A DNA stretch of 60,147 bases. It comes from Desulfomicrobium macestii (GTDB taxonomy: Bacteria > Desulfobacterota > Desulfovibrionia > Desulfovibrionales > Desulfomicrobiaceae). The number at the start of each line of letters is the position of its first letter. The first letter of the stretch is position 1. Location of the stretch: NCBI RefSeq assembly GCF_014873765.1, contig NZ_JADBGG010000028.1:1-60147 (forward strand), given 5' to 3'. Shown in pieces: positions 5,073 to 26,337 of the stretch. The translations under genes were made by a program, and so were the position numbers. The notes below the pieces were generated by a model. That model did not search any database and was not told the DNA's origin. It worked only from the letters and a program-made list of their open reading frames with translations.

Positions 5073-5074
5073 CC

Positions 5075-8390: not shown

Positions 8391-8394
8391 ACTT
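8391..8394. repeat. left 4-bp target duplication (ACTT)
   Basis: ACTT immediately before the IS is repeated at 9874-9877 immediately after it. This is the expected duplication of the zorD target and fixes the element's ends. Confidence 0.8.
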
Positions 8395-9873: not shown

Positions 9874-11097
9874 ACTTACCAGACTTTGCGCGACTATCAA
9901 TTTTCCTTATCTCGCATTGATTGGGGTATTGTGGCTTTTGACGAAGCTCAGAACATCAAAAACCCGAACACTCTACAAACTCGGGCCGCCAAGGCGCTCA
10001 AAGCCGATTTCAAACTTTTGGCCACAGGCACGCCTGTCGAAAACAGTCTCACAGACTTCTGGTGCCTCATGGATACTGCCCAACCCGGACTGCTCGGCAC
10101 TTGGGCCACATTCCGAGACTCGTACATTACTCCCATAAACCAGGCATCTGAGGATGAACAAGACCAAGTGCGTTTGGAGATCGGCAAAAAACTACGCGAT
10201 GATGTTGGGCCGTTCATGCTCCGGCGCCTGAAGTCGGAAGAATTGGACGGATTACCTGTAAAACGAATTTTCACAGGCGTCATGATCGAAAACAAAGACG
10301 GCTGGCAATTTGACCCCCTGCTCTCCTCGACCATGCAGGGAAAACAGTTAAGCTCCTACGACAACATCCTAAAGGACTTTTATGTGCTAAAGGAATCAGG
10401 ACAAGCGGGTAGCAAAGCCCTGACAGCTCTTGCACAGCTTCGGGCAATATCGCTGCACCCGGCGCTCATGAACGGTGACGGGAATCCGGTGCAAAATCCC
10501 CATGAGTCCGCAAAAATAACCTGCGTGTTCAATACGATTCAAGCGATAAAAAACAGGAATGAAAAGGTCATCATCTTTGCGATAACCAAAAAACTCCAAT
10601 CCATGCTGAAAATATGGATTCAAAAGCAATTTGGAATTGATGCAGGGATAATCAACGGCGACACAAAAGCAGTCTCTTCATCCAGCGGAGCTGAAACGAG
10701 AAAAGGCCTCATTGAAAAATTCGAAGCCAAGGAAGGCTTTAATGTGATCATCATGTCCCCTGTCGCCGCCGGCGTCGGATTGACAGTAGTAGGAGCTAAC
10801 AATGTGATTCATCTGGAAAGGCATTGGAATCCGGCAAAAGAAGCACAGGCTACAGATAGAGTTTACCGAATTGGAGCAACCCGTGATGTCAATATATACA
10901 TCCCAGCTCTTCATCATCCAGAGCATATTTCATTTGACGTGCTTTTGAACAAACTGCTTATGAATAAAATTGCGGTGAGCGATGCTGTTGTAACGCCACA
11001 AGCTGTAACTGAAATGGAAATGACGAGAATTTTTGAGTAGATTCCAGAATCGTCTGACAAACTTAAATCCGTTACATTTTTTATAACAAACAGAAGC

Positions 11098-11148: not shown

Positions 11149-11213
11149 AAAGTGGCTGCAACAAAATGTGCAGTTTATTTCAGGCGCTCATGTACCAGGA
11201 GGATGAGGAGGAA

Positions 11214-12833
11214 ATGGCTCAGGTCTTTGGATCAGCGGGAAAAAGTGCTTTTTCCATGGGCGACACGCGGTATCAGGACTTGCTTTCACGCATCGCCCTG
11301 CCCATGCTTTCGCTACTGCTGCTGATACCTGTCGGGTATTATCTGCTGACCCGTGGCCATTTTTTCTGGGGTGTCGGGGTCGCTTTCTTCTATGTCGTCT
11401 CCATCAAATCGCTTGAAGAGGCCGGGCTCAAACTCAAAAAGCGCATCTCCCACGCCGACACAGGTGCCAAGGCCGAACAAGCCGTCGCCGAAGCCTTGCA
11501 AGAACTCCCAGACGATTACTACGTCTTCCATGACCTCGAATTCCCCGGTTTCAACATCGACCATGTTGTCCTCGGCCCCAACGGCATCTTCCTGGTGGAG
11601 ACCAAAAGCCAGAAGGGAAACATCACCCAGGAAAACGACGTTCTGCTGAGAAACGGGCGCAAATTCTTCAAGAATTTTTTGAATCAATGCTGGAGCCAGA
11701 CCTACTCGCTCCGGGATCATCTGGGCGCGGAGAGACTTGGCGGACAGACGATCATGCCTATTCTTTGCTTCTCTCGAGGATTTGTGCAAATTCGTGGGCT
11801 GGTGAGAGGCGTTGAGGTGCTGAATATCCGCTTCTTACGGCCGTATATCCTCTCGCAGCGCGGGAGTCTTCCGACCCAGGCAAGAGATCAAATCATTCCC
11901 CTGCTGGCCGCAGCGTTGTCCAACCCGGCTGCACAACCCAGCCCAAGGGTCCCTCAATCCAAGACCGGCGGCATTGTCTGTCCGAAATGCTTTCATGAGC
12001 GCACACAAAACGATGATCTGCACTTTAGCGCGGGCGAATGCCCAAAATGCGGCGTCATCTACGCCCGCGCTCAATCGGATACGCCTGACACGCCCCCGAC
12101 TACCCAAACCACAAGCACCAAGGATCTCCCCCCAATAGTAATCGCCTTGCTGCCATTTCTGCCGAAGCGATTCCCCTTCACTCTGCTTGCAGCCGTTGCC
12201 ATGGCAAAAGGTAAACCGACAACACCCAATTTTTTTTGGAATATCCTGGCGCTCAAATTAGCAGCTTGCGCACTGGCCGCCCTCCTCTTGATCGGTGCCT
12301 ACAAAACCATGCAGGCCACCGTGACCAGCATTTTCAATCCACCGCAAACGCAAACCATGCAGACCCCTGAAAAGCCTATCCCAAATGAGCAGCATCCAAT
12401 TCAAGCCGTAGCATTTCCACTGACGCACGCGGTATCGTCGGACAATTCGGCAAGGGCGATCACTTTCGTCTTTGAGGAAGATCAAGGACAGAATGTGATA
12501 CTGCTTTTCTTCGACAACAAGGCCAAGACCCTCGCCTTGCGGGCCTGCGTCCGCGCATACGAAAAGTTGACCACGACACTCCCACGAGTCGACTTGGGCT
12601 ACGTCATTGTCACCGGCCAGGTCTGGCAGGGGTATGAAGACTTATTCGGCCCAGCATCAGAAGCGAAGAAAGCCCTTATTACCTTGAGTTCTCAGACCAA
12701 AGCGGGCAACGTCACGTCCATTCGAGCGACGTCGAGCATGTTCGTTCAGAAGGGAGTCCAAAGCCCCCTTCCTGAAACGAAAGCGTGGGTCAGAGCGGCC
12801 GTCAAGAATGCTGGTGGGTACATGAAAATGTAA
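11214..12833 (+). CDS. membrane NERD-domain nuclease-related protein with zinc ribbon
   Basis: 539 residues. Two hydrophobic segments (about residues 26-62) precede a NERD domain (about 80-190: TGAKAEQAVAEAL, FNIDHVVLGPNGIFLVETKS), whose D...E-x-K pattern (IDHV...VETKS) is that of a PD-(D/E)XK-like nuclease fold. A four-cysteine zinc ribbon follows (CPKC...CPKC, about 255-280), then a third membrane segment (about 345-365) and a C-terminal domain of unknown type. The start at 11214 is chosen because AGGAGGATGAGGAGG lies just before it; upstream in-frame ATGs lack such a site. It sits between Zorya and the BREX-like operon and could belong to either or act alone. Nuclease activity is inference. 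Confidence 0.75.
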   Translation: MAQVFGSAGKSAFSMGDTRYQDLLSRIALPMLSLLLLIPVGYYLLTRGHFFWGVGVAFFYVVSIKSLEEAGLKLKKRISHADTGAKAEQAVAEALQELPDDYYVFHDLEFPGFNIDHVVLGPNGIFLVETKSQKGNITQENDVLLRNGRKFFKNFLNQCWSQTYSLRDHLGAERLGGQTIMPILCFSRGFVQIRGLVRGVEVLNIRFLRPYILSQRGSLPTQARDQIIPLLAAALSNPAAQPSPRVPQSKTGGIVCPKCFHERTQNDDLHFSAGECPKCGVIYARAQSDTPDTPPTTQTTSTKDLPPIVIALLPFLPKRFPFTLLAAVAMAKGKPTTPNFFWNILALKLAACALAALLLIGAYKTMQATVTSIFNPPQTQTMQTPEKPIPNEQHPIQAVAFPLTHAVSSDNSARAITFVFEEDQGQNVILLFFDNKAKTLALRACVRAYEKLTTTLPRVDLGYVIVTGQVWQGYEDLFGPASEAKKALITLSSQTKAGNVTSIRATSSMFVQKGVQSPLPETKAWVRAAVKNAGGYMKM

Positions 12834-12921
12834 GTCAGTCAAAATTCTATTCAAATTAAAAATATATAATAAGATTTATTTCACTATTAAAGTATCAATA
12901 CAATCGCAGGCACTTTTCCCA

Positions 12922-13680
12922 ATGAATAAAAATTTTTCAACAATCGGATACGGATTCCTTCTGGAAGAGACTCTCATGCTGCTCGACGCCGCATTGGAGA
13001 GCAATGATGCGCAAGCTGTGCGTGGCTCATGTATCCAACGTTGGCCTCAGAAGTCCGAGTCTAACAAGGAAAAACTGTGGCAACACAAGAAATATCGCTT
13101 CCTGGAAATCGAGAACAACTCGATCAAAAACACTTCGTTCCTGAAGATGTTTCGAAAGATTCGCAGCAATGATGAAGCGGTTCAGGATCTGGTTTTTTTC
13201 CAGCTATGCATAACAACCCCTATTCTTTTTGAAACCCTTTCACTTTTGGTTACAGACAGCTTTCTGAATACCGGCGAGGCCGTTTTCTCTCGCTATCACC
13301 TCGACCAGCTCCTGGAACGTAAGTACGAGCGCATGCCTCAGTCAACTCGAGATCGAGTGCGGTCGATCCTCGTTAAGGCAGGACGCCTGAAGCTTTCGAA
13401 ATCCAATTACTCGGTGACCACGTCCTGCCCGACCGAGGCCGTTTTGGGCTACGCGCTCTATCACGACGCATCAAAAAACGGTTGGCGGGCACCCTCGACA
13501 GCCACGGTCATCAACGAAGGGACCATAGCTCCCATCTTCATGTGCAACCGCGCTTTGCTGATTGCCGGGGTCAACAAACTCGCAACCAAGGGACATTGTG
13601 AATATCACCGGCACGGAAGCACGGATCAAGTTCAACTGATTCATCAATCGCTGGAGGAGTATGTCGATGCCTGGAGATAA
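12922..13680 (+). CDS. brxA: BrxA-like protein (DUF1819-type)
   Basis: A 252-residue protein with the look of BREX BrxA: the N-terminal GYGFLLEETLMLL, the central hydrophobic helix LVFFQLCITTPILFETLSLL, and a winged-helix-like segment (RYHLDQLLERKYERMP, TRDRVRSILVKAGRL). BrxA is a small DNA-binding protein found in most BREX types. It opens a run of seven genes with overlaps or gaps under ten bases. An AT-rich 88-base gap separates it from the NERD gene and probably holds its promoter, though no clear -35/-10 was seen. The C-terminal 60 residues are unlike typical BrxA and unexplained. Confidence 0.68.
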   Translation: MNKNFSTIGYGFLLEETLMLLDAALESNDAQAVRGSCIQRWPQKSESNKEKLWQHKKYRFLEIENNSIKNTSFLKMFRKIRSNDEAVQDLVFFQLCITTPILFETLSLLVTDSFLNTGEAVFSRYHLDQLLERKYERMPQSTRDRVRSILVKAGRLKLSKSNYSVTTSCPTEAVLGYALYHDASKNGWRAPSTATVINEGTIAPIFMCNRALLIAGVNKLATKGHCEYHRHGSTDQVQLIHQSLEEYVDAWR

Positions 13681-14206
13681 CAAAACGACTCCAGTTCAGG
13701 CCAAGGCGCTCAATGAGCTTATAGGATTGGTCGGCGAAAGCCACGTTGGCGGGCGGACTCTTTGCTGCCTGATAGGCGGTCAAGGTTCCGGAAAAACATG
13801 GCTTGCGGAACACATGGCATCGCTGGGCGATTTCGGGCAGGCCCGATATGTGAGCGTGAATGACATCATTCTCGACCTGCTGGCCAAAGATCCCATGTTT
13901 GCCGAAGTGTTTGAATTCAATGCTACGACCATCACGGCGGATCTTAAACGCTACGGGAACAGACTTCGGAAGGCGGTTCACGACCATGTAGCCGAACAGC
14001 TATTACCAGCGGGACTGACCACCCTCGATCACTTGGAACTGGTTTTCGCGCTCGGCATGGACCCCATGACCACTTGGTACAACGATGCCGTGGGAAAAAG
14101 AAGAATTTTACTGGTGCTGACAGGACAAATGGCTGGTCAGCTTTGCCGCTGCGGGCAGTACACCCTGACTCGCGGAGATCAACCAATTGTGGAACTGGAG
14201 GCCTGA
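13661..14206 (+). CDS. brxF: BrxF-like small P-loop ATPase
   Basis: 181 residues with a Walker A loop GGQGSGKTWLAEHM near residues 35-48 and a putative Walker B strand RRILLVLTG near 147-155. Size, P-loop position and adjacency to brxC fit the BrxF ATPase of type 3 BREX. It overlaps the brxA gene by 20 bases; a GGAGG site lies before the ATG at 13661 (a second ATG six bases on is possible). The next gene starts one base after its stop. Identity is by context and motif rather than by a unique signature. Confidence 0.65.
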   Translation: MSMPGDNKTTPVQAKALNELIGLVGESHVGGRTLCCLIGGQGSGKTWLAEHMASLGDFGQARYVSVNDIILDLLAKDPMFAEVFEFNATTITADLKRYGNRLRKAVHDHVAEQLLPAGLTTLDHLELVFALGMDPMTTWYNDAVGKRRILLVLTGQMAGQLCRCGQYTLTRGDQPIVELEA

Positions 14207-14207
14207 T

Positions 14208-17200
14208 ATGCCACTCATGAAGGATATGTTTGATTTCACGCCCGTCAGTAGCTGGGTGGAAAACTTCAACGAGTCGACTCACGATTCCGCCAGCCGGACG
14301 CGGATTTTCGAAAGCTTCGTCATGCTGCCCGAGGTTGAGGAGTCGGCCCGAATTATCCTGGACCGAATTCACCGTAAGCAAGGTCGCGGCTTCTTCATCA
14401 CCGGTCTATACGGTTCAGGTAAGACCATCTTCATGGCATGGCTATCCGCCATTCTGACCGAACCGACGCTGCGCAAACAGTTCCTCGATACCAAGCCCGA
14501 ATGGGGCATGGATGCGCTCGCACCACGAAAATTCCTCACGATCAACTTTACCGCCATTGAAGTGCCTGACGAGACCCTCGAGCAGGCTTTCTGGAACTCT
14601 GTTACTGACCACTTGCGCCACCTCTCGCCGCCAGTAACGGCGACTCTGTCCAACACCGACGCCTATCTGGATACCTTTTTCAATCACACCGCCAGCGGCA
14701 CCCGCAGCGATGTGGAGAACTGGATTCGTGACAACCGGAGTCTCTCCGTCGTTCAGCTTCGCACCTATGACAAGGAATACCAGAAGACCATCATTGAGCA
14801 GGCTGTTGCCGCTCTGAACATTCAACTTGTCCAGGACCGCACTACGGTCACGGAGAAGGTCAAGAAGCTAGTCGAGATTGCCAGAGAGCGCGGATACGAG
14901 GGCGTCCAAGTCTTTATTGACGAGTTGTATCTTCACCTAATTCAGAGCGACGAACACTTCAACCGGGGCACTGCATTCCTTGGACAACTGGCCGAGGCAG
15001 GACTGGCCGGGGATCAACCGTTCTGGATTTTCGGCGCGGTTCAGGAAGAAATTCAGGCCATCGCTCGCCAAGCCGGGCGCAATTACGATACAGAGTTGAT
15101 GGGCAAGCTTTCCGGGCAATCCGGCCGCTTCCAATCCATTAACATCCCGGTTACGCAATTTCATCGCATTTACAACCACCGGCTATTCCGTGAAAACTCC
15201 AAATGCGTTCACAAGCTCGCCGATGCCTTCAAGGCTGAAATCCAGCCTCATTTCCGGGGGGCTTTTGCCGACTTTCTGAAGCGTTACTTCCGCGAACGCG
15301 AACCCATCACCGACGAGGCAAAACACTTTGCCGACGTTTATCCTATGCATCCCTTCGGGCTGTACTGCCTCACCGCGATCACCAATCGGGGCGGCAGATC
15401 CCGTGGCGCACTGGGATTTGTCCAGGAGTTCATTGAAAGACGCCTGCAGGATACCAGCGACTGGAAACGAATCGCGGTGCTCGACGACGTGTTCGACTAC
15501 GAGGATCTGCGCAACAAGATCATCCAAGATGATCCCGAGATGGCCAAGTATTACGGGATGTTCGAGCGATTCTGCAGCACGGCCAGGGACGAAGTCCTAT
15601 CCCGCGTGCCCTACAAACGCTGGTCGGACGCCGATCAGGCTGCCGCCAAGGTAGCGAGCGAGCGTCTGATCAAAGCCTTGATCGTCCTCTCCATGGTCAA
15701 GGAAGAACTCACCGTTTCCAAGCTGAATGACGCGCTTTTGCTGCGATGGCCCGGCAAGGAAAGTGACCCCGCTGGAAGCGATCAGGAAACGGCCCGAATC
15801 CTGGAAAAGATTGCCCAAACATTTCCGCCCCTTCGTCAGAAAGGCAGCGGGGAGAATCTGAGCTTTTTCCTCTCTGTTGAAGGTGACGGGGGCGAACGCG
15901 AAGAGCTGTTGGTTGAAGTCGAGCGGGTCAAGAATGGCTTCGCACCGGATATTCAGCTTGAGAGCGCCTACCGCTCCCATCTTGAACTGTTCCTCCGCTT
16001 CCCGGGCAGTCCGCTGGGCGGCACTATTCCGCCACAACACGGCTTCTCGACCCAGGTGGATGTGGAATGGCAGCGAACTCGCCGCTCCCTAGACTATCGG
16101 CTTGAGCCTGTCACGGCGCTGACCAACTATAATGCTGTCATCGGTTTTGTTAAAGACGTGCCCGCCACCAAGGCGTTACACTTGGCTGTGCTCTACCCGT
16201 CAGCCTCGCCGCTCGATGTCGAGATGGATGCAGTCCGTCATGGCAACGGACGGACCCTCGTATGGCTACCGGCCACATTGCCAGCCCAGGATATCGATGA
16301 GCTCAAGCGTAGCATGGCTTTGGTCAAGCTCTTTGGCGACTACCAGTCCCAGGTTAACGCGGGCGGTGCTTCGCAATCCGTCCGGCGCAAGCTGGAGCTG
16401 CTGGGCGAATGGATTGACCTTCCCGCCGGAACCAAATCGGCCCAGCCTGCCCGCAAGTCCACGGAGATTTTGCTCGAGTCCTTTGTGAACGGCGAAATCC
16501 GCCAGTGGAACACCAAGGACCAAGCCTGGGAAATCCTCTGTGAACCCGCAGAACTGCTCTCCCTCTACCAGAACATTCCGCAGAGTGAACGCTCTCTGGA
16601 GCGGCTCCTGGAAAAGGTCGCGACCAAGGCTTTAGCCAAGGTTTTCCACTTCCATCCGGATTTCCGGGAGGCCTATTCCTTTAGCGCGGATTTGAGCAAC
16701 CAGATGCGGAAACGCATCCTCGAAGCCATATGGAAAGGCCGAGTGACCGATGGGGATGGGACTGCCAAGGCCGATCTTGAAAAGCACCTTGCACCGCTTG
16801 GCCTACTTAACACCAGCGTGCCCGGAGAGGTCTCGGTAACGCTGGCGGCCAGCAGCGTGGAAGCCTTCAAAAAGGCGAAGGAGCGGATTCGGGACAATAT
16901 CCGCAAGGCAAACCCGCCTGCAACCAGCATCGCGGAAACCCGCAAACGGCTGAAAACCACGGATCTGGGATTGACCGACACCTGGGTGGATATCCTGATC
17001 ACGCTGCTCATCAGCACCGGGGAGATCAGCGGCTTCACCATTCACGGCAAGACGGTCTCTCAGGATGATCGCACCATTGGCAGCCCGGTTGACTGGCTCC
17101 AGGAGCTGGATGAACTCCGTCCCGGGACGCGTCCGGATGAAACCCTGTGGCACGACCTGACCGAGTCGCTTCACGCCCTTGGCCTCTGGAAAGAAGGCAC

Positions 17201-18386
17201 CGGTTACAGCCCGGCAGCCGCCGAGCGCCTCCTTGACCTCTTGAAAGAGACGGAAACCAGTGCCCGGCACGAGTTCCGCCAGGCCGAACAGGCAATGCAA
17301 ACTTGGCCCGGAGCCTCGGTTCCCGACCCCATTTCCGAATGGGCCGACATCTTTGCGCTGCCCGAGGATGGTAGAGAAAGCCGGGCTGCCTGTTATGCCT
17401 CGGTGCGTGGTGCCCTGCGCGACATGCTGGGGCTTGCCGAGGACGACGATATCGAGGCGGCCAATCGTTACACCTGTGTTGAAGAATTCGCTCACCGCGT
17501 GCGGGAAGCCCGCGATTTCCTGGATCGCATTTCCGAACTGGCGAGTCTTACCGGCAAACTTCGTGAGCTCAAAGCGCTGGGCGTCCCTTCCACCATTGAA
17601 AAGCCATGTCAAGAGCTGCTCGACAGCATCGAGTCCTACGTCAAATCCGCAGGCGCGTCCGGGGAAATGAGCCGTATTACCGCCGAATGGAAGGATCTGC
17701 ACGAGCTCTATCTCAACCAGTACCTGAGTGAACACGCGGGCCTGCACAATGATCTGAAAGCCCTCCGTGATGCCGTGCTCGGCAGCCCAAGCTATCAGGT
17801 GCTGAAGGACCTCTCACAGGTGGAAGGGCTCAGCGCCCATTTTAGCCCGGCCTTTATCGAAGCTCAACTGACCGACCTGTTGACCCAGGTCGGCGTGCAG
17901 CAGGTTTGCGAACAAAGCCTGGATGACGTGAAGAGCGACCTGTCCCACGGCTGGGTGTGTGCCGTCTGTGGCTATAAACCCGGCAAGCGTCTGGAACTCA
18001 AGCCGGACCATTTCCTGGGGTTGGTTGATCGCGGCACCAAGGAATACCTGGATCATGTGCGGGGCTGCGAAGCCGAGCTCCGGGATTACGTCAGCGACAC
18101 GCCCGCCGCAAATCCTTTGCTGGGGTTGCTCAGCGATCCCGCAGAGCAAAGCGCTCTCGATGCGCTGCAAGACGCCACCATGCGCGAGCACCTGACGGAG
18201 GCCCTGGCTGAGGCGGAAGCCGTGAAGGTGAATGTTGATGAATTGCTGGATAAATTGAAGCCGAAGCTGCTTGGATTCTATAAAACGGGCGAAGAGGATT
18301 TTAACAGAAAATTCGCCGACGCTGTGCGGGAGGAATTGGCCCCTTATCGAACGAAAGCTTCTGACAAGCCTTGGAAGGTGGAATAA
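14208..18386 (+). CDS. brxC: BrxC-like large ATPase (DUF6079 type)
   Basis: A 1392-residue protein starting MPLMKDMFDFTPVSSW. An AAA+-like ATPase domain carries the Walker A loop TGLYGSGKTIFMAWL near residue 65 and a Walker B-like strand VQVFIDELYLHL near residue 236. The middle is helical, and near residue 1250 there is a single CAVCGYKPGK motif that may bind zinc. This matches the PglY/BrxC group of BREX, here closest to the DUF6079 branch found in type 3 systems. The ATG at 14208, one base after the brxF stop and behind GGAGG, is preferred. BrxC is essential in known BREX systems and probably forms an ATP-driven scaffold on DNA. Confidence 0.85.
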   Translation: MPLMKDMFDFTPVSSWVENFNESTHDSASRTRIFESFVMLPEVEESARIILDRIHRKQGRGFFITGLYGSGKTIFMAWLSAILTEPTLRKQFLDTKPEWGMDALAPRKFLTINFTAIEVPDETLEQAFWNSVTDHLRHLSPPVTATLSNTDAYLDTFFNHTASGTRSDVENWIRDNRSLSVVQLRTYDKEYQKTIIEQAVAALNIQLVQDRTTVTEKVKKLVEIARERGYEGVQVFIDELYLHLIQSDEHFNRGTAFLGQLAEAGLAGDQPFWIFGAVQEEIQAIARQAGRNYDTELMGKLSGQSGRFQSINIPVTQFHRIYNHRLFRENSKCVHKLADAFKAEIQPHFRGAFADFLKRYFREREPITDEAKHFADVYPMHPFGLYCLTAITNRGGRSRGALGFVQEFIERRLQDTSDWKRIAVLDDVFDYEDLRNKIIQDDPEMAKYYGMFERFCSTARDEVLSRVPYKRWSDADQAAAKVASERLIKALIVLSMVKEELTVSKLNDALLLRWPGKESDPAGSDQETARILEKIAQTFPPLRQKGSGENLSFFLSVEGDGGEREELLVEVERVKNGFAPDIQLESAYRSHLELFLRFPGSPLGGTIPPQHGFSTQVDVEWQRTRRSLDYRLEPVTALTNYNAVIGFVKDVPATKALHLAVLYPSASPLDVEMDAVRHGNGRTLVWLPATLPAQDIDELKRSMALVKLFGDYQSQVNAGGASQSVRRKLELLGEWIDLPAGTKSAQPARKSTEILLESFVNGEIRQWNTKDQAWEILCEPAELLSLYQNIPQSERSLERLLEKVATKALAKVFHFHPDFREAYSFSADLSNQMRKRILEAIWKGRVTDGDGTAKADLEKHLAPLGLLNTSVPGEVSVTLAASSVEAFKKAKERIRDNIRKANPPATSIAETRKRLKTTDLGLTDTWVDILITLLISTGEISGFTIHGKTVSQDDRTIGSPVDWLQELDELRPGTRPDETLWHDLTESLHALGLWKEGTGYSPAAAERLLDLLKETETSARHEFRQAEQAMQTWPGASVPDPISEWADIFALPEDGRESRAACYASVRGALRDMLGLAEDDDIEAANRYTCVEEFAHRVREARDFLDRISELASLTGKLRELKALGVPSTIEKPCQELLDSIESYVKSAGASGEMSRITAEWKDLHELYLNQYLSEHAGLHNDLKALRDAVLGSPSYQVLKDLSQVEGLSAHFSPAFIEAQLTDLLTQVGVQQVCEQSLDDVKSDLSHGWVCAVCGYKPGKRLELKPDHFLGLVDRGTKEYLDHVRGCEAELRDYVSDTPAANPLLGLLSDPAEQSALDALQDATMREHLTEALAEAEAVKVNVDELLDKLKPKLLGFYKTGEEDFNRKFADAVREELAPYRTKASDKPWKVE

Positions 18387-18390
18387 GAAA

Positions 18391-19905
18391 ATGTTTGTAA
18401 TTTCAAATGTACCAAGTGTTTTTCTTACGAAACCAGCGGTTGAGGACTCTCGTCTAGATTTTGACTATAGCAACCCGGAATATCGGAATACTTTTCCACC
18501 CAACCTCATGCTTAAAAGGTTAGAAAAATACCTGGAGGATGTAAGTTACGGTACTTCAGAAAAGTGCCATGATTCTATTCAGGAAGATGATGTTGCTGTT
18601 CTGAGGATGAATAATATTTTCGATGCTCGCCTCAAACTCGACGATTTAGTTTATGTTGATCGGCAAGTGATAGGGGAAAATATGTTACAGCCAAATGACA
18701 TAGTAATTAATCGAACTAACAGCAAAGAGTTAGTTGGAAAATGTGCGCTGTATGAAGGGAAAATAGAAGCATCATACGCCTCATATTTGATTAGACTAAG
18801 GGTAGATGAAGGAAAGATATATCCAGCATTTTTGGTGCTGTATTTGTCATCAAAGCACGGGCGCAATGAAATAAATAAGCGTAGTTGTGGGACTGCTAAC
18901 CAGTACAACATATCAATTGGGCATATTAAATCTTTTGTCCTCCCTGAGCTGCAAAAGAACGATCAAGAAAAGATAGTAAGTCGTTACAAATCCGTTGAGC
19001 AATGCAAGCTAAGATTCTTCACTTTTAGAAATAATGCTCTTCATTCCCTATCAGAAAGAACAAGCCAAAATATCGATTCTATTTTTGCTTCCGAGATAAG
19101 TGTTAAGAGTTTTGTGTCAAAGAGAAACAATATCGTTTTTCTGCGAAATCATCTCGATGCAGATCGCCTCGACGTGACAGCGAATCATCCTGACTACACA
19201 AAGCTTGTCGACCAGATACGAGCAAGTTCAGACACGGGCCATCTGTCCGATTTGGTTGATGAGTCAGAGGAACGGTTCAATCCTGACGATCATTTAGGCG
19301 AAGAAGTCCGCTATCTCGCGATTGGCGACATTGATGGAATTACGGCGAGAATCATCGAACCACAGAAAATGTTAGCGGAGGAATTGCCCTCACGCGCCAG
19401 ACGTTTAATTCATGCTGGCGACATCCTGGTTGGGATTGCAGGTGCATCTACTGGCACAGAAAATATGGTGGTATTTCCTGTTACGCGTGAGCAGGAAGGC
19501 TGGATCGCGACGACTGGATTTTTGGTGCTACGTCCGAGAGACGGGGTTGATATTCATTATGTCTGCTCATTGCTAAAAGCTCCCTTCGTTCTTCGGCAAA
19601 TCAGGGCATTACTAACAAGTCCCGCAATGCCAACGATCAGCGACACTGATTTTATGCAACTAGCCGTCCCGGTTACGAATTCAGATGCTCGCGAAACAAC
19701 CTTGATTGAGATAAACAGGGTTTTAAATGAAGGGAGGCAGCTAACCATTCAGTTGGAACAGATATCCGAACAGATCGAGCAACTACTATCTGAAGCGAAA
19801 TCAAACATCTTCGATTTGCTCGATGATGACAAGTTTTCGGCTATTTCTGCTAGGGCTATGGGCATAGGAAACGCCATGGGGAAGATTGAGGAGGCGCTGC
19901 AATGA
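18391..19905 (+). CDS. hsdS: type I restriction specificity subunit (HsdS-like)
   Basis: 504 residues arranged as two target-recognition halves, each followed by a helical coiled-coil spacer: roughly 20-215 with its helix at 220-245, and 260-455 with the helix at 455-490 (QLEQISEQIEQLLSEAKSN). This is the standard plan for a type I S subunit, which sets the DNA sequence methylated by HsdM. It is unusual to find it inside a BREX gene set: it lies between brxC and pglZ, four bases after the former and overlapping the latter by four (ATGA). The first half is AT-richer than its neighbours, consistent with exchange of recognition domains. Confidence 0.82.
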   Translation: MFVISNVPSVFLTKPAVEDSRLDFDYSNPEYRNTFPPNLMLKRLEKYLEDVSYGTSEKCHDSIQEDDVAVLRMNNIFDARLKLDDLVYVDRQVIGENMLQPNDIVINRTNSKELVGKCALYEGKIEASYASYLIRLRVDEGKIYPAFLVLYLSSKHGRNEINKRSCGTANQYNISIGHIKSFVLPELQKNDQEKIVSRYKSVEQCKLRFFTFRNNALHSLSERTSQNIDSIFASEISVKSFVSKRNNIVFLRNHLDADRLDVTANHPDYTKLVDQIRASSDTGHLSDLVDESEERFNPDDHLGEEVRYLAIGDIDGITARIIEPQKMLAEELPSRARRLIHAGDILVGIAGASTGTENMVVFPVTREQEGWIATTGFLVLRPRDGVDIHYVCSLLKAPFVLRQIRALLTSPAMPTISDTDFMQLAVPVTNSDARETTLIEINRVLNEGRQLTIQLEQISEQIEQLLSEAKSNIFDLLDDDKFSAISARAMGIGNAMGKIEEALQ

Positions 19906-22388
19906 CCGCCATGGAACAAGCTCTGGCTGGCATGTGGCGCGGCCGTGAAAAGCAGAGGTTGCCCTATCTGCTGGTCAATGACGTGCGCGGCTATTTTGCC
20001 GAAGCGCCCACCGAACTGCTGGTCGATGGCCAAGCCATTCCCGTGCATGTCTGCGCCAATGAGTTTGGATTGCGTCGTCATACCGAACCCGAGCGTCGGC
20101 AACCGAATCCACCCGCTCGTATCATCATCTCGCGTCAACAGCTTCAGCCGGATCATCTGCCGGACTTGCAGGCCCGCTCCAGCGTGTCGCCCCGCACGGT
20201 AACGGGTTGCGACATAGCCAAGGCGCTTGGCGTGCAGAATCCCCGGGCCTTGCTTGACCGGCTTCCCATCCCCGCATTCTGGAACCTGGCCCCGTACCTG
20301 CCACAGCTCGGCGCTTACAGTCTGGAACGCGTGGTGCTCGCCTCGCTGCTGAACGATCCCAGCGTGTTGTCTGCAGGCTGGGAGCCGGATCGCATTCTCG
20401 ACAAGCTCTGGTACGAGAATGCGCTGGCACGGGTACGCGAGGTGCTGGGCTCGGTCGATGCGGATGAACGCCGGGCGCTGGAGCGGGAATTCCTGGACGT
20501 GGTTCACACCTGGCTCGATGGGCCTCGTTTCGCCTTGGTCGAGGCCGCCGTGTTGGAAAGTGATCCACCGCCGGTGCTGCCGATCTGCCTGCTCGCCTCC
20601 ATTCTGGACGGCTGGAAGATGCTTACGCCGGAACGGATGCGTACCTTCCTCGATGGCAGCGAACTGGGCGACCTGTTTGTTGACGTGCTCAAGGACGGGC
20701 AAAGCCTGCATGGTCTTGCCGACTGGGGCCGCCGCATCACCCTCAAAGACGATACGCCCTGCAAACAGGCGCTGCACTACCTGCAGCACGAAGTCTTTCC
20801 GAAGCACCCCAGTGCCCTCACCGAGTCCCTTGCGACAGTGGTCAAGGGTGTGGGCGGCAAAGGCTCGGAGCGCCTGCTGAATCAGCTTATCCAGGTGCTG
20901 GAAGCCGATGGTGGCATCCTTGCCCAGGGTCTGGCAGTCACCCTGCACGCGTTGCTCGATGTGGTTGTCAACGGCGAGCGGGCCGACACGCTTCCGCTTG
21001 AAAAGGCTCCCTGCAAGCTGACCGATGCGTTGGAAACACCGGATGCCCCGGAATGGGAAGAACTCCTGGAAGCCCTGCGCCGACATCAGGCTCGCGAGCA
21101 GTACGAGGACCACGTATCGCTGCTGGAAGCGATGGTCACGATTCACCGACTTACGGACAAGGCCGAGGCGGCGGTTAAGAATCTCGCCAGCCTGGATTGG
21201 AAGGCTTGGATGACGCTGGTGGATTCGGTGTATCTACCGCTCTCCACGATGGCGCTGGAGGCGGAACGGCGGTCTAGCCAGTTGCCGGAAAAGGTCAATG
21301 TCTTTCGTATCACCCAGCGGGCGAAAAAGGCATGCGACTCTATTCGCATCGCCTGGGCGGATTTCTATGTGCAGCCGAGCCGTGGACTGCCGAAGTGGTT
21401 GAACGAACGCAAGTTCGCAGCAGGCACCTGCAGACCTTGGCTGAATAGCGATGTCATGGAATCTGCGGTCAAACCACTGCTGCAGGATTCCGAGATCAAG
21501 CAGGTTTATCTGCTGGTCTTTGACGGGATGAGCGTGGCCAACTGGACTTTGCTGCGTGACCGCTTCCTGATGATGCCGGGGCGTGAGCTGTTTCGCCCTT
21601 ACCAGTCGCTGGGGCCTGAGTTCCGCGCCTGCACTTATCTACCCAGCATTACCGAATATTGCCGACAGGCCATTTTTGCCGGAGCGCCTCCGGCGGAGTT
21701 CCGGAGCTGGCCGAATTGGAAAAGTGAACCCCATCTGCTCGAGCGTTGCCTGGACAACCTGGGGCTTTCGTCTTCCTCCTGGTGGGATCGGGACAAGAAC
21801 TACCTCTGCTACAACGAGAAGGACGCCAACGCCGACACCCTCAACAGGAAAATGCGCGACCTGGTGGATGCCCCCGGACGCCTCAAGGCGGTGGTGTTCA
21901 ACCTCCAGGATCGACTTCTGCAGAAGGGCATGTCGAGTCTCCAGGAGATCATGCTGGCCTATGTGAAGGAGGTGGCGCTGCCCCACCTGCGAAGGATCGC
22001 CGCCCAGGACAAGACGGCCGTTGTCATCACGGCCGACCACGGCTTCACCTGGTACAACACTCAATACGTCATTGACGATTTGAAATCGGACAGCGGACCC
22101 GGACGGGATGTCTTCATCCATAACCGCTGCCTGGAATACAAGGCCTCCAACCGCACCACCGTTGGCCCTACGGATGTAAAACGGATCGAGCCGGTTGCCG
22201 ACTACGGCCTTCCAGCAAGCCTAAATGCCGTTGAGCTGCCCTTGGGGCACGACAGCTATGGCTGGCCTGGAGCCAAGCAGACATCGGCAGGCAACCCCTA
22301 CAAGGTTCAGGGCAACGACCATGGTGGATTGACCCCGGAAGAAACAGTCATCCCGGTTGCGGTGTACATAACACGAGGAGCGAAATAA
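19902..22388 (+). CDS. pglZ: BREX phosphatase-domain protein PglZ
   Basis: 828 residues. The C-terminal half has an alkaline-phosphatase-superfamily (PglZ) domain: the metal-binding LLVFDGMSVANW near residue 537 and VVITADHGFTWY near 707-718. A later histidine occurs in GNDHGGLTPEE near the end. PglZ is the marker protein of BREX and probably a metal-dependent nuclease or phosphatase. The N-terminal half is helical. Good AGGAGG ribosome site; four-base overlap with hsdS; three bases to hsdM. High confidence for the family. Confidence 0.93.
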   Translation: MTAMEQALAGMWRGREKQRLPYLLVNDVRGYFAEAPTELLVDGQAIPVHVCANEFGLRRHTEPERRQPNPPARIIISRQQLQPDHLPDLQARSSVSPRTVTGCDIAKALGVQNPRALLDRLPIPAFWNLAPYLPQLGAYSLERVVLASLLNDPSVLSAGWEPDRILDKLWYENALARVREVLGSVDADERRALEREFLDVVHTWLDGPRFALVEAAVLESDPPPVLPICLLASILDGWKMLTPERMRTFLDGSELGDLFVDVLKDGQSLHGLADWGRRITLKDDTPCKQALHYLQHEVFPKHPSALTESLATVVKGVGGKGSERLLNQLIQVLEADGGILAQGLAVTLHALLDVVVNGERADTLPLEKAPCKLTDALETPDAPEWEELLEALRRHQAREQYEDHVSLLEAMVTIHRLTDKAEAAVKNLASLDWKAWMTLVDSVYLPLSTMALEAERRSSQLPEKVNVFRITQRAKKACDSIRIAWADFYVQPSRGLPKWLNERKFAAGTCRPWLNSDVMESAVKPLLQDSEIKQVYLLVFDGMSVANWTLLRDRFLMMPGRELFRPYQSLGPEFRACTYLPSITEYCRQAIFAGAPPAEFRSWPNWKSEPHLLERCLDNLGLSSSSWWDRDKNYLCYNEKDANADTLNRKMRDLVDAPGRLKAVVFNLQDRLLQKGMSSLQEIMLAYVKEVALPHLRRIAAQDKTAVVITADHGFTWYNTQYVIDDLKSDSGPGRDVFIHNRCLEYKASNRTTVGPTDVKRIEPVADYGLPASLNAVELPLGHDSYGWPGAKQTSAGNPYKVQGNDHGGLTPEETVIPVAVYITRGAK

Positions 22389-22391
22389 CAG

Positions 22392-24236
22392 ATGGCAACT
22401 CTTGATCAATTTAAAGAATTTTTAATCTCTGACCTGAAATTCAAAGCCCACCAGATCAATGATGGTGATGGTTCTGGCGTTGCCACAACGGTTCAAGGGC
22501 TGGACGAGAAAGCAGCGTTTCTGGTGTCAACCAGCGTCGGCAATTGCTATGCCGCCTTCAAGCATGAAGGCTCAGCAACGCTGAGTGAATCCGAGGCCAA
22601 CCGGTACAAAGCTCTCAGCATTCTCATGCCATTAGGTCAAAAAAATGAACAAGTCGACTGTACCCCTGCAGCATATTGCGTGATAGAGGTTGCCGGGCAC
22701 CTCCGCCTTTTCTACATAGAAAAAGGAAACGAGATTCATGATGAAATGTCAGCTTGGCCCGATATTCGTGAAGCAGAAGATACCGTTCGAGAATACACTC
22801 CTGAGATCATAAAAAGTCTGCAGCAGTGGGCGCAGAAAACACTCCATACGGAAAACAGCCTCTCCCGCTTCGTGCAGCTCATGAAAGGCTGCTGGCAGGA
22901 CATTTGGGACATCGAGAACAAGCGCAATGACTGGATCTTCGACGAGTTCACGCGCCTCCTGTTTATAAAACTCAATGAAGACGCAAAACCCAGCGGTAGT
23001 TTTACCACTGCCAAGCTGAAATCGTATTGCGAGCAAAACAAACACATGGGCGACAAGGCCGCCCAGAACTTCATCAATAACCTGTTCGATGACCTGAAGG
23101 GACACCACCCCGAAGTCTTTACTGACGAGAACGAGCGAGTACTCAGCAAGGCGGCAACCGTTGAGCGGGTCATTGCACGTCTTGAAGGGATCAACCTGAA
23201 AGACACCCAGGGCGATGTGCTTGGCCGTGCCTTCGAAATCATGCTGTCCGATACCTTCAAGGGTAAAGACCTCGGTCAATTCTTTACGCCACGAGAAATC
23301 GTCGCTTTCATGCTGGATCTTGCTCGCGACAATCCAGACGGCCCAGCCTTGGACATCGGAAAGGGGGAACGCTTTCTGGATGCCTGTGCAGGGTCAGGTG
23401 GTTTTCTGATCGCTACTTACGAGGACGTGTACAAGCACGCACTCGGGGGCGGCGTGGAGCCACGCAAGAAAGATCAGCTCCTAAAGCGCCTCGGCCAGGA
23501 AACCTTCTTCGCGTGCGAGATTGAAGAGAAGGCGGCTCGCCTTGGAAAACTGAACATGATCGTTCACGCCGTCAACGCGCAGAACGCTCAGTGGCTTCAC
23601 CAGAACTACCTCTACAACGAGGAATACGGTGGCTTGAAACCGTCAATTGAATACGAGGTCGACTTCGGCGACGGCAAGAAGAAGCGCCGCATAGGACCAG
23701 ACAGCATCGACCTCGTGCTGACCAATCCGCCATTCGGCAAGTCCGTCAAGACCGAGGGTATTCTGCTGGATTATCAATTCGGGCATGAGGTCAAGGTCTT
23801 CAAGTCCAAGGGCCGTCCACCGGAGAAGCGACCGAAAAACAGTCAGGACAGCGAGGTCCTCTTCATTGAGCACTATCTTCGGGTGTTGAAGCCGGGCGGC
23901 AAGCTGCTCATTGTTCTTCCCGACGGTGTGTTGTCTAACGCCACCGCGAAACCCGTTCGGGATCATATGCGTGAGCATGCCATCATCAAAACTGTGATTT
24001 CTCTGCCAAGCGAAACCTTTGCATCAACCGGAACCTCCATTCCGACCAATGTGGTGTATCTGCAGAAGAAGCGTCCGGGAGATGTTCAGGGCGATATCTT
24101 CATGGCACGGGCTGATTACGTCGGCCGCCGGGCCAATGGCGACCCGCTCAAGGAAAACGACCTCCCGTTCATCCTTGAAAAATTCCGTGAATGGCAAACA
24201 GGAACGCTTGAACTCCCGGAGGAGGATAACGCGTGA
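22392..24236 (+). CDS. hsdM: type I N6-adenine methyltransferase subunit (HsdM-like)
   Basis: 614 residues with the N6-adenine methylase core: QFFTPREIVAFMLDLA near residue 297, SAM-binding FLDACAGSGGFLIATY near 327, and the catalytic motif LTNPPFGKS near 441. The N-terminal 150 residues look like a type I R N-terminal / DUF-like nuclease fold variant rather than a plain HsdM_N domain (KAAFLVSTSVGNCYAAFKHE), which is unusual. With the hsdS two genes upstream it should form a sequence-specific methylase. It takes the place of PglX in this BREX-like operon. No hsdR lies anywhere in the window. The next gene overlaps by four bases (GTGA). Confidence 0.88.
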   Translation: MATLDQFKEFLISDLKFKAHQINDGDGSGVATTVQGLDEKAAFLVSTSVGNCYAAFKHEGSATLSESEANRYKALSILMPLGQKNEQVDCTPAAYCVIEVAGHLRLFYIEKGNEIHDEMSAWPDIREAEDTVREYTPEIIKSLQQWAQKTLHTENSLSRFVQLMKGCWQDIWDIENKRNDWIFDEFTRLLFIKLNEDAKPSGSFTTAKLKSYCEQNKHMGDKAAQNFINNLFDDLKGHHPEVFTDENERVLSKAATVERVIARLEGINLKDTQGDVLGRAFEIMLSDTFKGKDLGQFFTPREIVAFMLDLARDNPDGPALDIGKGERFLDACAGSGGFLIATYEDVYKHALGGGVEPRKKDQLLKRLGQETFFACEIEEKAARLGKLNMIVHAVNAQNAQWLHQNYLYNEEYGGLKPSIEYEVDFGDGKKKRRIGPDSIDLVLTNPPFGKSVKTEGILLDYQFGHEVKVFKSKGRPPEKRPKNSQDSEVLFIEHYLRVLKPGGKLLIVLPDGVLSNATAKPVRDHMREHAIIKTVISLPSETFASTGTSIPTNVVYLQKKRPGDVQGDIFMARADYVGRRANGDPLKENDLPFILEKFREWQTGTLELPEEDNA

Positions 24237-26206
24237 GCGAGCTTTATATCGGAAAACATCTCGATCCCAATGGGATGCCGGGAGAGCTGTACCGCCATAA
24301 GCTGAGTGACCTGATCACTCACACCTTTATTTGTGGGGGCTCAGGCTCCGGTAAAACGGTAATGGGCAAAGCCATCATTGAGGAAGCAGCCCTCAAAGGG
24401 GTCCCCTCGATTATCGTGGATCTCAAGGGCGACTTGTCTTCCTTGGCGCTTGCTTTCGGAGAACTGGCAGCCCCGGCCGTTGCGCCATGGGTCGAGGTTG
24501 AAGACAAATCTACGCTTGGTCGCGCCGCCTTGGCTGAAGCCAACACCTTCCGGAAACGGTTATGGGATTGGGGGCTTGCCGAAACCAACGTGCGGGAGTT
24601 TTCCAACCAGGTAGCCGTTGAAATTTTCACCCCCCGCAGCGAACTCGGCCGCCGGGTATCCATTCCGCTCATTTCTTCCCCGCCGCCGGACATCAATAAG
24701 CTATTTGACGAGGACCCGGATACGGCTTCGGTCATGGTGACCAGCATGGCGGAAGCGCTGGTGCGCCGGGTGATTCCCTCGGGACAGCGGGACCGGGAAA
24801 CGGATTTTGTTACCGCTCTCATCGAGCACGCCTGGCGCACGGGCGTTGATCTGACTGGCGAGGCAGGTCTTGGGGAATTGGTCTCCATGATTCTGGAACC
24901 GCCCTTTGCCACCATTGGTGTGCTGGGAATCGATGACCATATTCCCGAGAACCGGCGTCAAAAGCTTGCACAGGCGGTAAACGGACAGCTCGTCGGCGCG
25001 GCCGCCAACTGGGTTCGGGGCGAAGAGATGAGCATCGAGAAGCTGGTGGGAGCCAACCGTGTCGACGGCAAGACCCAAATCAGCGTTATCAGCCTAGCTC
25101 ACATCACCGACTTTGAGGATCAGAGCTTCGTTGTTGCCCAAGTTGCCTTTGCAATCAACGCCTGGATGCGTAAGCTAGGTAGCGCTCCCGGTGGAAACAG
25201 ACCGCGCCTGTTGTTCTTCCTGGATGAGATCGGCGGTGGCGGTGGAAAGACCGCTTTCTATCCCACCTACCCCTATACATCCACCTGCAAACCCGCATTG
25301 AATATTCTGGTCAAGCAAGGACGTGCCTTTGGTGTCGGTTGCATCCTCGCGACGCAAAACCCCGGGGACATTGACTATAAAGGCCTTTCGAACTGCGCCA
25401 CCTGGATCGTTGGCAAACTGCAGACAAAAAGAGATCGGGACAAGGTTCGTGAGGGTTTGACCGACGCGGAATTTTCACCTTCCGATCTTGCCAAGAAAAT
25501 AGCTCGCCCCAAGACCGGCGAGTTCATGCTCCTGAACAAGGAAGGCGACGTCCATTTCATTAAGGAACGCTGGCTCCTGACCTATCATTGCACGCTGAGC
25601 CCAGAGCAACTTCGCCGCTATAAAGCCAAGGGGTTGACCCCCTATGAAGGCTCACTGAACACAGACATTGCCTTCGAGGATTTCGAGGAGACCATCAAGT
25701 CCGACGGTCAGGAAGAAATCCAATCGCTTTGGAATGATGCCAAGGACGCTATCGGGCAAGCCTGCAACCTGCTCGAAAAGATTCTCGATCACGACATCAC
25801 TTCCGAGAAAGCACGACTTTGGATATCCATCCTGCGTGACCCGGATGGATTCAATCGCCGCCTTCAGGAAGCCCAAAGGCAGCTTACCGAGTATGCCGAA
25901 GCGGCTCCCCTACCCAAGGGTAGCAACGGCCAAGAACCCAGCGCCCTGATGACGTTGCTCTCTGAAAAGAAGAGCGCGAACCAAGGCCCGTCGTTAAACG
26001 ATACACGGATGGTGACGAGTCCTGCTTCTGCACAGCCACTGGGCGATAGCGTACTTGTGCAGGATGATGGCAGCGTTAACTACAAGGGACGAACGTTCCA
26101 GCTTTACCGGAGATACGCTGGCAAATCTGTGGCTTTCATTGAGGAAGATGGCGAACTGAAATTTTCTATCGAAGGCAAAGTTCTCTCGAAGAGCTTCAAG
26201 CTGTAG
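24233..26206 (+). CDS. HerA-type ATPase (DUF853)
   Basis: 657 residues of the HerA/FtsK-like ATPase family, DUF853 branch. Walker A is CGGSGSGKTVMGKAII near residue 35; Walker B is RLLFFLDEIGGGGG near residue 325. The arginine/sensor region with ATQNPGDIDYKGLSNC follows. Such proteins pump or translocate DNA and often pair with a nuclease. GTG start overlaps hsdM by four bases. It is the last gene of the seven-gene BREX-like operon and could supply the motor function usually given by BrxH or BrxL. Role in defence is inference. Confidence 0.85.
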   Translation: MSELYIGKHLDPNGMPGELYRHKLSDLITHTFICGGSGSGKTVMGKAIIEEAALKGVPSIIVDLKGDLSSLALAFGELAAPAVAPWVEVEDKSTLGRAALAEANTFRKRLWDWGLAETNVREFSNQVAVEIFTPRSELGRRVSIPLISSPPPDINKLFDEDPDTASVMVTSMAEALVRRVIPSGQRDRETDFVTALIEHAWRTGVDLTGEAGLGELVSMILEPPFATIGVLGIDDHIPENRRQKLAQAVNGQLVGAAANWVRGEEMSIEKLVGANRVDGKTQISVISLAHITDFEDQSFVVAQVAFAINAWMRKLGSAPGGNRPRLLFFLDEIGGGGGKTAFYPTYPYTSTCKPALNILVKQGRAFGVGCILATQNPGDIDYKGLSNCATWIVGKLQTKRDRDKVREGLTDAEFSPSDLAKKIARPKTGEFMLLNKEGDVHFIKERWLLTYHCTLSPEQLRRYKAKGLTPYEGSLNTDIAFEDFEETIKSDGQEEIQSLWNDAKDAIGQACNLLEKILDHDITSEKARLWISILRDPDGFNRRLQEAQRQLTEYAEAAPLPKGSNGQEPSALMTLLSEKKSANQGPSLNDTRMVTSPASAQPLGDSVLVQDDGSVNYKGRTFQLYRRYAGKSVAFIEEDGELKFSIEGKVLSKSFKL

Positions 26207-26223
26207 AAAAAATGGAGGCTGAC

Positions 26224-26337
26224 ATGCAAGACAGATCACAATATTCAGCGGCAGCATCTTTGCTCGGGTATAGCTACCAGTGCTGTCTTGCATCAACCAG
26301 CATGGCGGGCAGCGCCAAAACGGCTGTGGGTCAATAG
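26224..26337 (+). CDS. 37-codon ORF, likely relic of a defence gene N terminus
   Basis: An ORF with a strong ribosome site (ATGGAGGCTGAC before the ATG) encodes MQDRSQYSAAASLLGYSYQC... and then stops within 20 residues. The segment SAAASLLGYSYQCCLA resembles the opening of several defence-associated nuclease or ATPase proteins, where a GYLYQ-type helix begins the protein. The remaining 20 residues do not look conserved. It is probably a truncated remnant, perhaps still translated because the start signals are intact. It follows the HerA gene by 17 bases. Confidence 0.4.
   Translation: MQDRSQYSAAASLLGYSYQCCLASTSMAGSAKTAVGQ

What the first reader, a model, noticed from the sequence alone, without database searches (positions are those of the whole stretch)
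12922..26206. BREX-like operon using type I HsdM/HsdS and a HerA ATPase instead of PglX and BrxH
Seven overlapping genes give BrxA, BrxF, BrxC, HsdS, PglZ, HsdM, HerA/DUF853. Described BREX types use PglX (a single-chain methylase) and a BrxH helicase or BrxL protease. Here a two-part type I methylase with a swappable specificity subunit appears to mark self DNA, and HerA may supply the motor. No HsdR is present, so this is not a plain type I system that landed nearby. It could be a new BREX type in which self-recognition can be changed by exchanging hsdS.
Basis: partly seen in the sequence, partly recalled or inferred. Interest (0 to 1): 0.88.

Follow-up and report, generated by a model that had tools for sequence, protein, structure and literature searches.

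The report
BREX-like defence with swappable specificity subunit
A bacterium carries a likely phage-defence gene cluster that joins the core of the BREX system to a two-part DNA-marking enzyme and a DNA-pumping motor; related clusters in distant microbes keep the machine but exchange the piece that reads the DNA sequence, as if changing the password.

Summary
Window 12922-26206 encodes, closely packed on one strand, a BrxA-like protein (weak match), a BrxF-like P-loop protein, BrxC/DUF6079, HsdS, PglZ, HsdM and HerA. Six further loci carry the unit: three gamma/betaproteobacteria, a deltaproteobacterial MAG and Paenibacillus at 78-98% protein identity, and an archaeal MAG (two contigs) at 57-86%. 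HsdM is in 7 of 7 loci; a specificity module in 6 of 6 where the spot is readable. In four it is a separate HsdS with exchanged recognition domains although the other genes are 86-98% identical to the window's; in two it is one domain fused to HsdM. HsdM's C-terminus follows this split/fused divide. No HSDR_N match lies on the window contig; one carrier genome has none. It is not MADS: no PglZ or BrxC relative showed in the MADS stretches read. The nearest described system is BRC (BREX-Related Capture, Rakesh and Krishnan 2026): BrxC, PglZ, STAND, DUF4007, HerA, with GNAT/TGT as proposed markers. HerA plus a BREX core is thus in print; a type I-style M+S module there was not found in my searches. 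Verdict: new variant of a known kind. Exchange of specificity is shown by comparison; methylation, defence and the HerA/PglZ steps are inferred.

The parts
12922..13680 (+). BrxA-like protein, 252 aa (putative DNA-binding/sensing)
   Evidence: No Pfam match; hhalign to BREX BrxA (PF08849 members) score 36.5, colinear, above decoys; DUF4007 only 22.3, probability 1.9%
13661..14206 (+). BrxF-like small P-loop NTPase, 181 aa, Walker A GGQGSGKT
   Evidence: hhalign score 39.4 to four small P-loop proteins of BREX-3 loci, shuffles up to 19.1, P-loop controls 30.9 and 23.2; directly upstream of brxC
14187..18386 (+). BrxC/PglY-like AAA+ ATPase, 1399 aa (ATG 14208 is an alternative start)
   Evidence: DUF6079 48 bits, BrxC_BrxD 29 bits; PADLOC BrxC 3.7e-27
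18391..19905 (+). HsdS specificity subunit, 504 aa, two target-recognition domains; the exchanged block
   Evidence: PDB matches 2y7c at residues 51-209 and 3okg at 294-474; no nucleotide match from 18279 (18385 for L027) to 19889 between window and L025-L027
19902..22388 (+). PglZ, 828 aa, candidate nuclease effector; D541, T584, D712, H713, H807 invariant in 7 of 7
   Evidence: PorX match 7pv7/7pva E 2.5e-4 with these positions aligned to the same letters in PorX
22392..24236 (+). HsdM N6-adenine methyltransferase, 614 aa; DACAGSGG and TNPPFG motifs present
   Evidence: N6_Mtase 4.1e-42; RM.BsaXI and type I M subunits in PDB; MAD2 model 196 bits, cut-off 720
24233..26206 (+). HerA/FtsK-type DNA translocase, 657 aa, Walker A GGSGSGKT and FFLDE present
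   Evidence: HerA_C 33 bits, DUF87 29 bits; short stretches match defence HerA structures 8xau, 8wiv
26207..26291 (+). Start of an ABC-3C (Cap4-like) gene, broken off here, that goes on downstream of HerA in L025 and L026; marks the 3' edge of the shared unit
   Evidence: Sequence and blastn edges

Best explanation
A mobile, BREX-like restriction system of the HerA-bearing (BRC-like) kind whose self-mark is made by a type I-style methylase. Inferred working: HsdM with HsdS methylates adenine at sites set by the two recognition domains of HsdS; BrxC, BrxF and BrxA assemble with it on DNA and detect unmethylated sites; the HerA ring pumps or captures the incoming DNA, and PglZ, whose active-site letters are intact, nicks or degrades it. 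Exchanging hsdS, or a single fused domain, resets which sites count as self while the machine stays the same. Shown here: composition, conserved order, intact catalytic motifs, purifying selection, swapping of recognition domains, co-variation of the HsdM C-terminus with the form of the specificity module. Inferred: methylation, anti-phage activity, the sequence of steps and the roles of HerA and PglZ.
For: Same unit in the window plus 6 loci, one of them in two pieces; HsdM in 7 of 7; specificity module in 6 of 6 readable loci (4 separate, 2 fused). hsdS and hsdM are separated by pglZ, so they are not a landed type I cassette. Recognition domains swap: L025 and L026 share the first at 153/205 identical but the second at 30/152, while their BrxC and HerA are 98% and 97% identical. 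HsdM alignment columns 451-600 are 93-100% identical among the five unfused copies, 66-71% between unfused and fused, 82% between the two fused. dN/dS 0.04-0.31 in 26 of 33 gene comparisons (6 saturated, 1 failed). PglZ positions invariant. Type-1 BREX PglZ is reported to be a nuclease and HerA capture is proposed for BRC (PMC12839542). It lies in a defence island. One carrier genome, G168, has no HSDR_N match at E 1e-5.
Against: No experiment. The BrxA assignment is weak, and the BrxF reference set was labelled by its place in BREX-3 loci (my reading), not by a model. PglZ's catalytic half and the BrxA-like protein could not be modelled. 6 of 7 carrier genomes have HSDR_N matches on other contigs, so an HsdR in trans is made unlikely by G168 alone. 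Seven loci are few. The archaeal copy is from a MAG, on two contigs, so its host is unsure and its hsdS spot unread; its BrxA is only 57% identical. In L029 the PglZ C-terminal part is also divergent (72-75% to all others), and the window's HsdM N-terminus differs from the other copies (71-85% identical), so variation is not confined to the specificity module.
Confidence: 0.6

Rival explanations
1. It is simply a member of the described BRC (BREX-Related Capture) systems, and the 45 BRC taxa already include loci such as these, the M/S genes having been passed over in the text.
For: BRC shares HerA, DUF6079/BrxC, PglZ and an active small NTPase, is sparse and scattered over bacteria and archaea, and carries GNAT/TGT only in a subset. 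The loci here are equally rare and scattered.
Against: The paper's list of seven components and its section on self-marking name no M/S methylase for BRC; the BrxA-like protein here does not resemble DUF4007 by profile; none of the five carrier names searched is in the main text. Supplementary tables could not be read.
Confidence: 0.22
2. HsdM/HsdS is an ordinary type I methylase, orphan or served by an HsdR elsewhere in the genome, that happens to sit inside a BREX-like operon.
For: HSDR_N matches exist in 6 of 7 carrier genomes; HsdM and HsdS are type I-like.
Against: Where a separate hsdS is seen (4 loci) M and S flank pglZ in the same order, and HsdM is kept in 7 of 7; in the window hsdS overlaps pglZ by 4 bp and hsdM lies 3 bp after it; G168 has no HSDR_N match.
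Confidence: 0.08
3. It is a degenerate or variant MADS (methylation-associated defence system).
For: HsdM and HsdS score best among NCBIfam models to MAD2 and MAD5, and HerA matches PADLOC mad8; a NERD gene lies upstream, as in MAD6.
Against: Scores are far below the MADS cut-offs (196 of 720; 71 of 400 bits). Two MADS stretches gave no BLAST match to the window's PglZ, BrxC or HerA at E 0.01, and five proteins of one (MAD2, 5, 6, 7, 8) no Pfam match to PglZ or DUF6079; MAD3 and MAD4 were not located there. The window's PglZ and BrxC match no PADLOC mad profile. The NERD gene was not found in the 1.4-4.5 kb read upstream of brxA in L025-L029.
Confidence: 0.03
4. The operon mainly acts against plasmids or integrating elements, or regulates expression by switching methylation, rather than against phages.
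For: HerA capture systems have been proposed to act at conjugation or segregation (PMC12839542); a Wadjet-like locus is close by.
Against: No direct evidence either way; the BREX core and defence-island position point to phages.
Confidence: 0.07

Closest known systems
BREX-Related Capture (BRC) system, Rakesh and Krishnan 2026, PMC12839542
   Same: PglZ, DUF6079/BrxC, small active NTPase, a BrxA-like DNA-binding protein and HerA/FtsK; rare and scattered over bacteria and archaea
   Different: BRC has DUF4007 (not detected here) and GNAT/TGT as proposed markers in a subset; here HsdM plus HsdS, or fused HsdM-TRD
BREX type 3
   Same: BrxF-like gene directly upstream of brxC; PglZ ends right after the catalytic domain (type-3 feature); BrxA-like protein
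   Different: No BrxHII helicase and no single-chain PglXI; PglZ scores 44 bits in the BREX-3 model where eight BREX-3 proteins score 590-933
BREX type 1 (BrxABC, PglX, PglZ, BrxL)
   Same: BrxA-like, BrxC, PglZ and an N6-adenine methylase core
   Different: No BrxB match (score 12), no BrxL; M and S are separate genes; HerA added
MADS
   Same: HsdM of MAD2 style, HsdS of MAD5 style, HerA-like ATPase
   Different: No PglZ/BrxC relative in the MADS stretches read; here no MAD6 kinase and no MAD7 match
Type I restriction-modification
   Same: HsdM with a two-domain HsdS; domain shuffling of HsdS
   Different: No HsdR at the locus; M and S split by pglZ and embedded in a BREX-like operon

Membership tests
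BREX (any type) | BrxC (DUF6079) and PglZ encoded together | tested here: met
   both found in 7 of 7 loci, in L030 on two contigs
BREX (any type) | A BrxA-like protein | tested here: inconclusive
   Profile match above decoys but weak; fold not modelled
BREX (any type) | A BrxB/BrxF-like protein | tested here: met
   BrxF by profile, above P-loop and shuffle controls; the four references are small P-loop proteins of BREX-3 loci, named BrxF by position; no BrxB match
BREX types 1-3, 5, 6 | Single-chain methylase PglX/BrxX | tested here: not met
   HsdM 614 aa plus separate HsdS in the window; fused 880 aa form in L028 and L029 only
BREX types 1-3 | BrxL or BrxH | tested here: not met
   Neither among the Pfam or PADLOC matches of the seven operon proteins
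BREX type 2/3 PglZ subfamily | Score above the NCBIfam cut-off | tested here: not met
   57.5 of 200 and 44.3 of 250 bits; eight BREX-3 proteins score 32-55 bits in the BREX-2 model
BRC | HerA with BrxC/DUF6079 and PglZ | tested here: met
   definition
BRC | DUF4007 | tested here: not met
   No Pfam match at E 5; hhalign score 22.3, probability 1.9%. A shared fold is not excluded
BRC | GNAT and TGT (subset of BRC loci) | tested here: not met
   None among the Pfam matches of the seven operon proteins
BRC | PglZ/BrxC/HerA group with those of BRC | not testable with these tools
   No BRC sequence at hand; supplementary files not readable
MADS | MAD6 kinase and MAD7 with MAD2/MAD5/MAD8 | tested here: not met
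   reference stretches
Type I R-M | HsdR encoded with HsdM/HsdS | tested here: not met
   No HSDR_N match on the window contig C28 or in the ten ORFs scanned

The most novel reading that the evidence does not exclude
A distinct, undescribed BREX-class subtype in which the PglX function is divided into HsdM and an exchangeable HsdS, HerA replaces helicase/protease, and the operon moves between phyla (perhaps domains) while self-specificity is reset by domain shuffling; the two fused HsdM-TRD copies would show a route from a split methylase to a PglX-like single chain.
Probability: 0.5. Interest if true: 0.78.

Novelty: new variant of a known kind. Interest (0 to 1): 0.62.

Why it matters
How BREX tells self from non-self, and how its methylase talks to PglZ, is still open. 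A BREX-class machine with a separate, naturally swapped specificity subunit lets specificity be changed without touching the effector, so the two can be separated in one experiment. It also links type I R-M, BREX and HerA capture systems, and offers natural split and fused versions of one methylase for study.

Tried and rejected
MADS: rejected after reading reference stretches. DUF4007 identity of the first gene: rejected at sequence level. An early idea that the PglZ C-terminus co-varies with the fused methylase was dropped: only L029 is divergent there, while L028, also fused, is not. NERD gene 11166-12833 as an eighth member: dropped; not found in the 1.4-4.5 kb read upstream of brxA in L025-L029.

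Led nowhere: the mad1 search matched a generic HTH in 383 of 395 genomes. Searching 246 genomes of the archaeal MAG's phylum with the BrxC profile found only that MAG. The DUF4007 search matched 10 of 247 genomes; in the ten stretches fetched my narrow profiles found nothing BRC-like, but those profiles also missed the PglZ of L075, and only L075 and parts of L067, L069, L070, L072 and L073 were annotated (L072 has a long HerA protein and no PglZ among six proteins scanned), so a BRC locus among them is not excluded. Plasmid match H26 turned out to be BREX type 2; H27 and H5 show no BREX-like neighbours in the annotation. The L017 match to PglZ residues 35-128 was taken as spurious. Structures of the BrxA-like protein (mean pLDDT 41.3) and of PglZ (43.6; residues 486-828 below 50) failed; Foldseek found nothing at E 0.001; the VIA rows cover a helical stretch around residues 400-500, where PorX chains stand at Z 8.5 among unrelated helical bundles, so no weight is put on them.

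Own errors found on checking: in the first BrxC tree the row called BREX-3 was not a BrxC (one search shows a REP-transposase match); the tree was rebuilt with three BREX-3 BrxC rows, chosen by length and place next to the BrxF-like gene, and the window group stayed one supported group. The second 'type 1' row, L085, scores below the cut-offs of the type-1 and type-6 PglZ models, and the type-4-like BrxC row of L075 has no Pfam match. Deep placement is unsure: long branches, weak forks, few rows per type. The BrxC L028 dN/dS comparison failed (my frame offset) and six others were saturated.

Literature: searches (listings; 20 of 32 shown, 20 of 21, 15 of 50,080, where most were plant MADS-box papers). 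Of PMC12839542 I read the abstract, sections 12, 18, 33, 34, 36, 39 and found passages; of PMC12707154 and PMC11980395 only passages; the MADS paper (10.1016/j.chom.2024.07.005) is not held, so MADS rests on model names and stretches read here. The roles of the PorX residues and of the HsdM and Walker motifs are recalled; the PorX alignment is. 'Not described' means: not found in these seven searches of open-licence PMC papers.
Full report
What is there. On the + strand of the window seven genes run from 12922 to 26206 with almost no spacing: BrxA-like (252 aa), BrxF-like (181 aa), BrxC/DUF6079 (1399 aa), HsdS (504 aa from ATG 18391; the longer ORF start at 18271 lies inside brxC), PglZ (828 aa), HsdM (614 aa) and HerA (657 aa). 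BrxC, HsdM and HerA are identified by Pfam; PglZ by NCBIfam and PADLOC matches and a borderline Pfam score; HsdS by PADLOC and by two recognition domains that match EcoKI HsdS and a second S subunit in the PDB. Two small genes carry no family name above cut-off in Pfam, PADLOC or NCBIfam. By profile-profile comparison the second is a relative of the small P-loop protein (BrxF by position) of BREX-3 loci: score 39.4, shuffles at most 19.1, unrelated P-loops 30.9 and 23.2; besides the P-loop it shares an LDHLELVF/LDNLEILF segment. The first is a weak but colinear BrxA match (36.5 against 24.2 reversed, 18.5 best shuffle) and not DUF4007.

Relatives. The scan looks for exact short patterns, so it finds close relatives only. 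In the window's own phylum 1 of 394 other genomes has a full-length relative (G168) and none of 100 genomes chosen as nearest relatives does; the other matches in those calls cover part of the protein at 26-36% identity. Nothing was found in viral contigs, phages, plasmids or E. coli genomes (near matches only). In L025-L029 BrxA, BrxF, BrxC, PglZ, HsdM and HerA are 78-98% identical to the window's, in the same order. L030 begins 273 bases upstream of PglZ; BrxC (1304 residues to the contig edge, 79%), BrxF (73%) and BrxA (57%) lie on another contig of the same MAG, so its hsdS spot is unread.

The unit and its edges. Nucleotide similarity between the window and L025, L026 and L029 starts at 12920, two bases before the first gene, and ends at 26291-26293, 85 bases after herA inside the broken start of an ABC-3C gene that goes on in L025 and L026. 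Inside, the only long stretch without a nucleotide match to L025 and L026 is 18279 to 19889, that is the brxC tail and hsdS; against L027 it is 18385 to 19889. dN/dS lies between 0.04 and 0.31 in 26 of 33 gene comparisons (six saturated, one failed).

The specificity module. L025, L026 and L027 have a full-length HsdS in the same place. L025 and L026 share the first recognition domain (153 of 205 identical) but not the second (30 of 152); the window's HsdS shares neither (43 of 200 and 27 of 145 with L025). L028 and L029 have no hsdS gene; their HsdM is 880 aa and carries one recognition domain at its C-terminus. In L028 about 200 bases remain between brxC and pglZ that, by eye, begin like the HsdS of L027 and look like a scar. 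HsdM alignment columns 451-600 are 93-100% identical among the five unfused copies, 66-71% between unfused and fused, and 82% between the two fused, while columns 141-450 are 88-98% identical throughout. HsdM thus co-varies with the kind of specificity module, as expected of true partners. L030 falls with the unfused class, which predicts a separate hsdS there. Against a simple picture: the window's HsdM N-terminus (columns 1-140) is only 71-85% identical to the others, and L029's PglZ C-terminal part only 72-75%, so recombination has touched other parts too.

How it most likely works. PglZ keeps D541, T584, D712, H713 and H807 in 7 of 7 copies, aligned to the same letters of PorX, and PglZ of type-1 BREX is reported as a metal-dependent nuclease (PMC12839542 section 18). 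HsdM has its cofactor and catalytic motifs; HerA has Walker A and B motifs. I therefore infer methylation of self by HsdM/HsdS, recognition of unmethylated DNA by the M/S-BrxC-BrxF-BrxA assembly, DNA pumping by HerA, and nicking or degradation by PglZ. An HsdR is not at the locus; HSDR_N matches exist on other contigs in 6 of 7 carrier genomes, but none in G168 at E 1e-5, so the operon persists without one there.

What it is closest to. In the trees the seven PglZ and the seven BrxC each form one supported group (100/99 and 100/98) on a long stem, beside few rows of other types (PglZ: two type-1-like, one type 2, seven type 3, one type-4-like; BrxC: two, one, three, one); the deeper order is unsure. 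The window BrxC matches the type-2 row at 23% over 796 residues and two type-3 rows only over 87 residues. The window PglZ scores 57.5 and 44.3 bits in the BREX-2 and BREX-3 models; eight BREX-3 PglZ score 590-933 in their own model (the lowest is a cut protein) and 32-55 in the BREX-2 model, so this PglZ is about as far from types 2 and 3 as they are from each other. Rakesh and Krishnan (2026) describe BRC: PglZ, DUF6079, STAND NTPase, DUF4007, HerA, with GNAT/TGT in a subset, in 45 taxa, and list adenine methylation, phosphorothioation, and putative acyl or deazaguanine marks as the marking strategies. HerA with a BREX core is therefore known; the HsdM/HsdS module in that setting is not in the sections I read or in the seven searches made. 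The paper's supplementary tables could not be read, so overlap with the 45 taxa is not excluded. MADS shares the style of M, S and HerA, but the stretches read showed no PglZ or BrxC relative.

Verdict. I file it as a new variant of a known kind; whether it is a BRC subtype or a separate BREX type is open.

Noticed in passing
window 2008-11040: A Zorya-like operon (MotA/ExbB-type gene at 2008-4347) whose SNF2 helicase gene appears in two pieces, 6564-8396 and 9886-11040 (C-terminal part of ZorD), with an IS5-type transposase gene between them at 8427-9743.
   Followed up: partly
window 26207-26291; L025 16281-22481; L026 14675-17650: An ABC-3C module (Cap4-like protein with CTD7, MC3, then a third gene at the ATPase position) follows herA in L025 and L026; only its first 85 bases remain in the window, and about 340 bases after herA match in L029.
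   Followed up: partly
window 26668-28425 and 47204-53856: A GmrSD/HEC-05 gene and a Wadjet-like set (MukB-like ATPase at 48193-51816) lie downstream, making this a defence island (the Wadjet name is from recall).
   Followed up: no
   Followed up: partly
L029 10001-14191 compared with L025 and window: Mosaic: the PglZ part 561-828 is 72-75% identical to all other copies while 1-560 is 97-98% identical to window, L025 and L026, which suggests recombination inside the putative effector.
   Followed up: partly
L025, L026, L029 upstream of brxA: About 1.1 kb upstream is shared by L025 and L029, and most of it by L026, beyond the window's edge at 12920; by eye an AIG2-like gene lies there and a similar ORF upstream of the MADS stretch L047.
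   Followed up: no
L030 6801-10419; L055 6181-7671: In the archaeal MAG the operon is followed by a SIR2-like plus HerA pair and preceded by a gene that matches PADLOC profiles of Argonaute-associated proteins.
   Followed up: no
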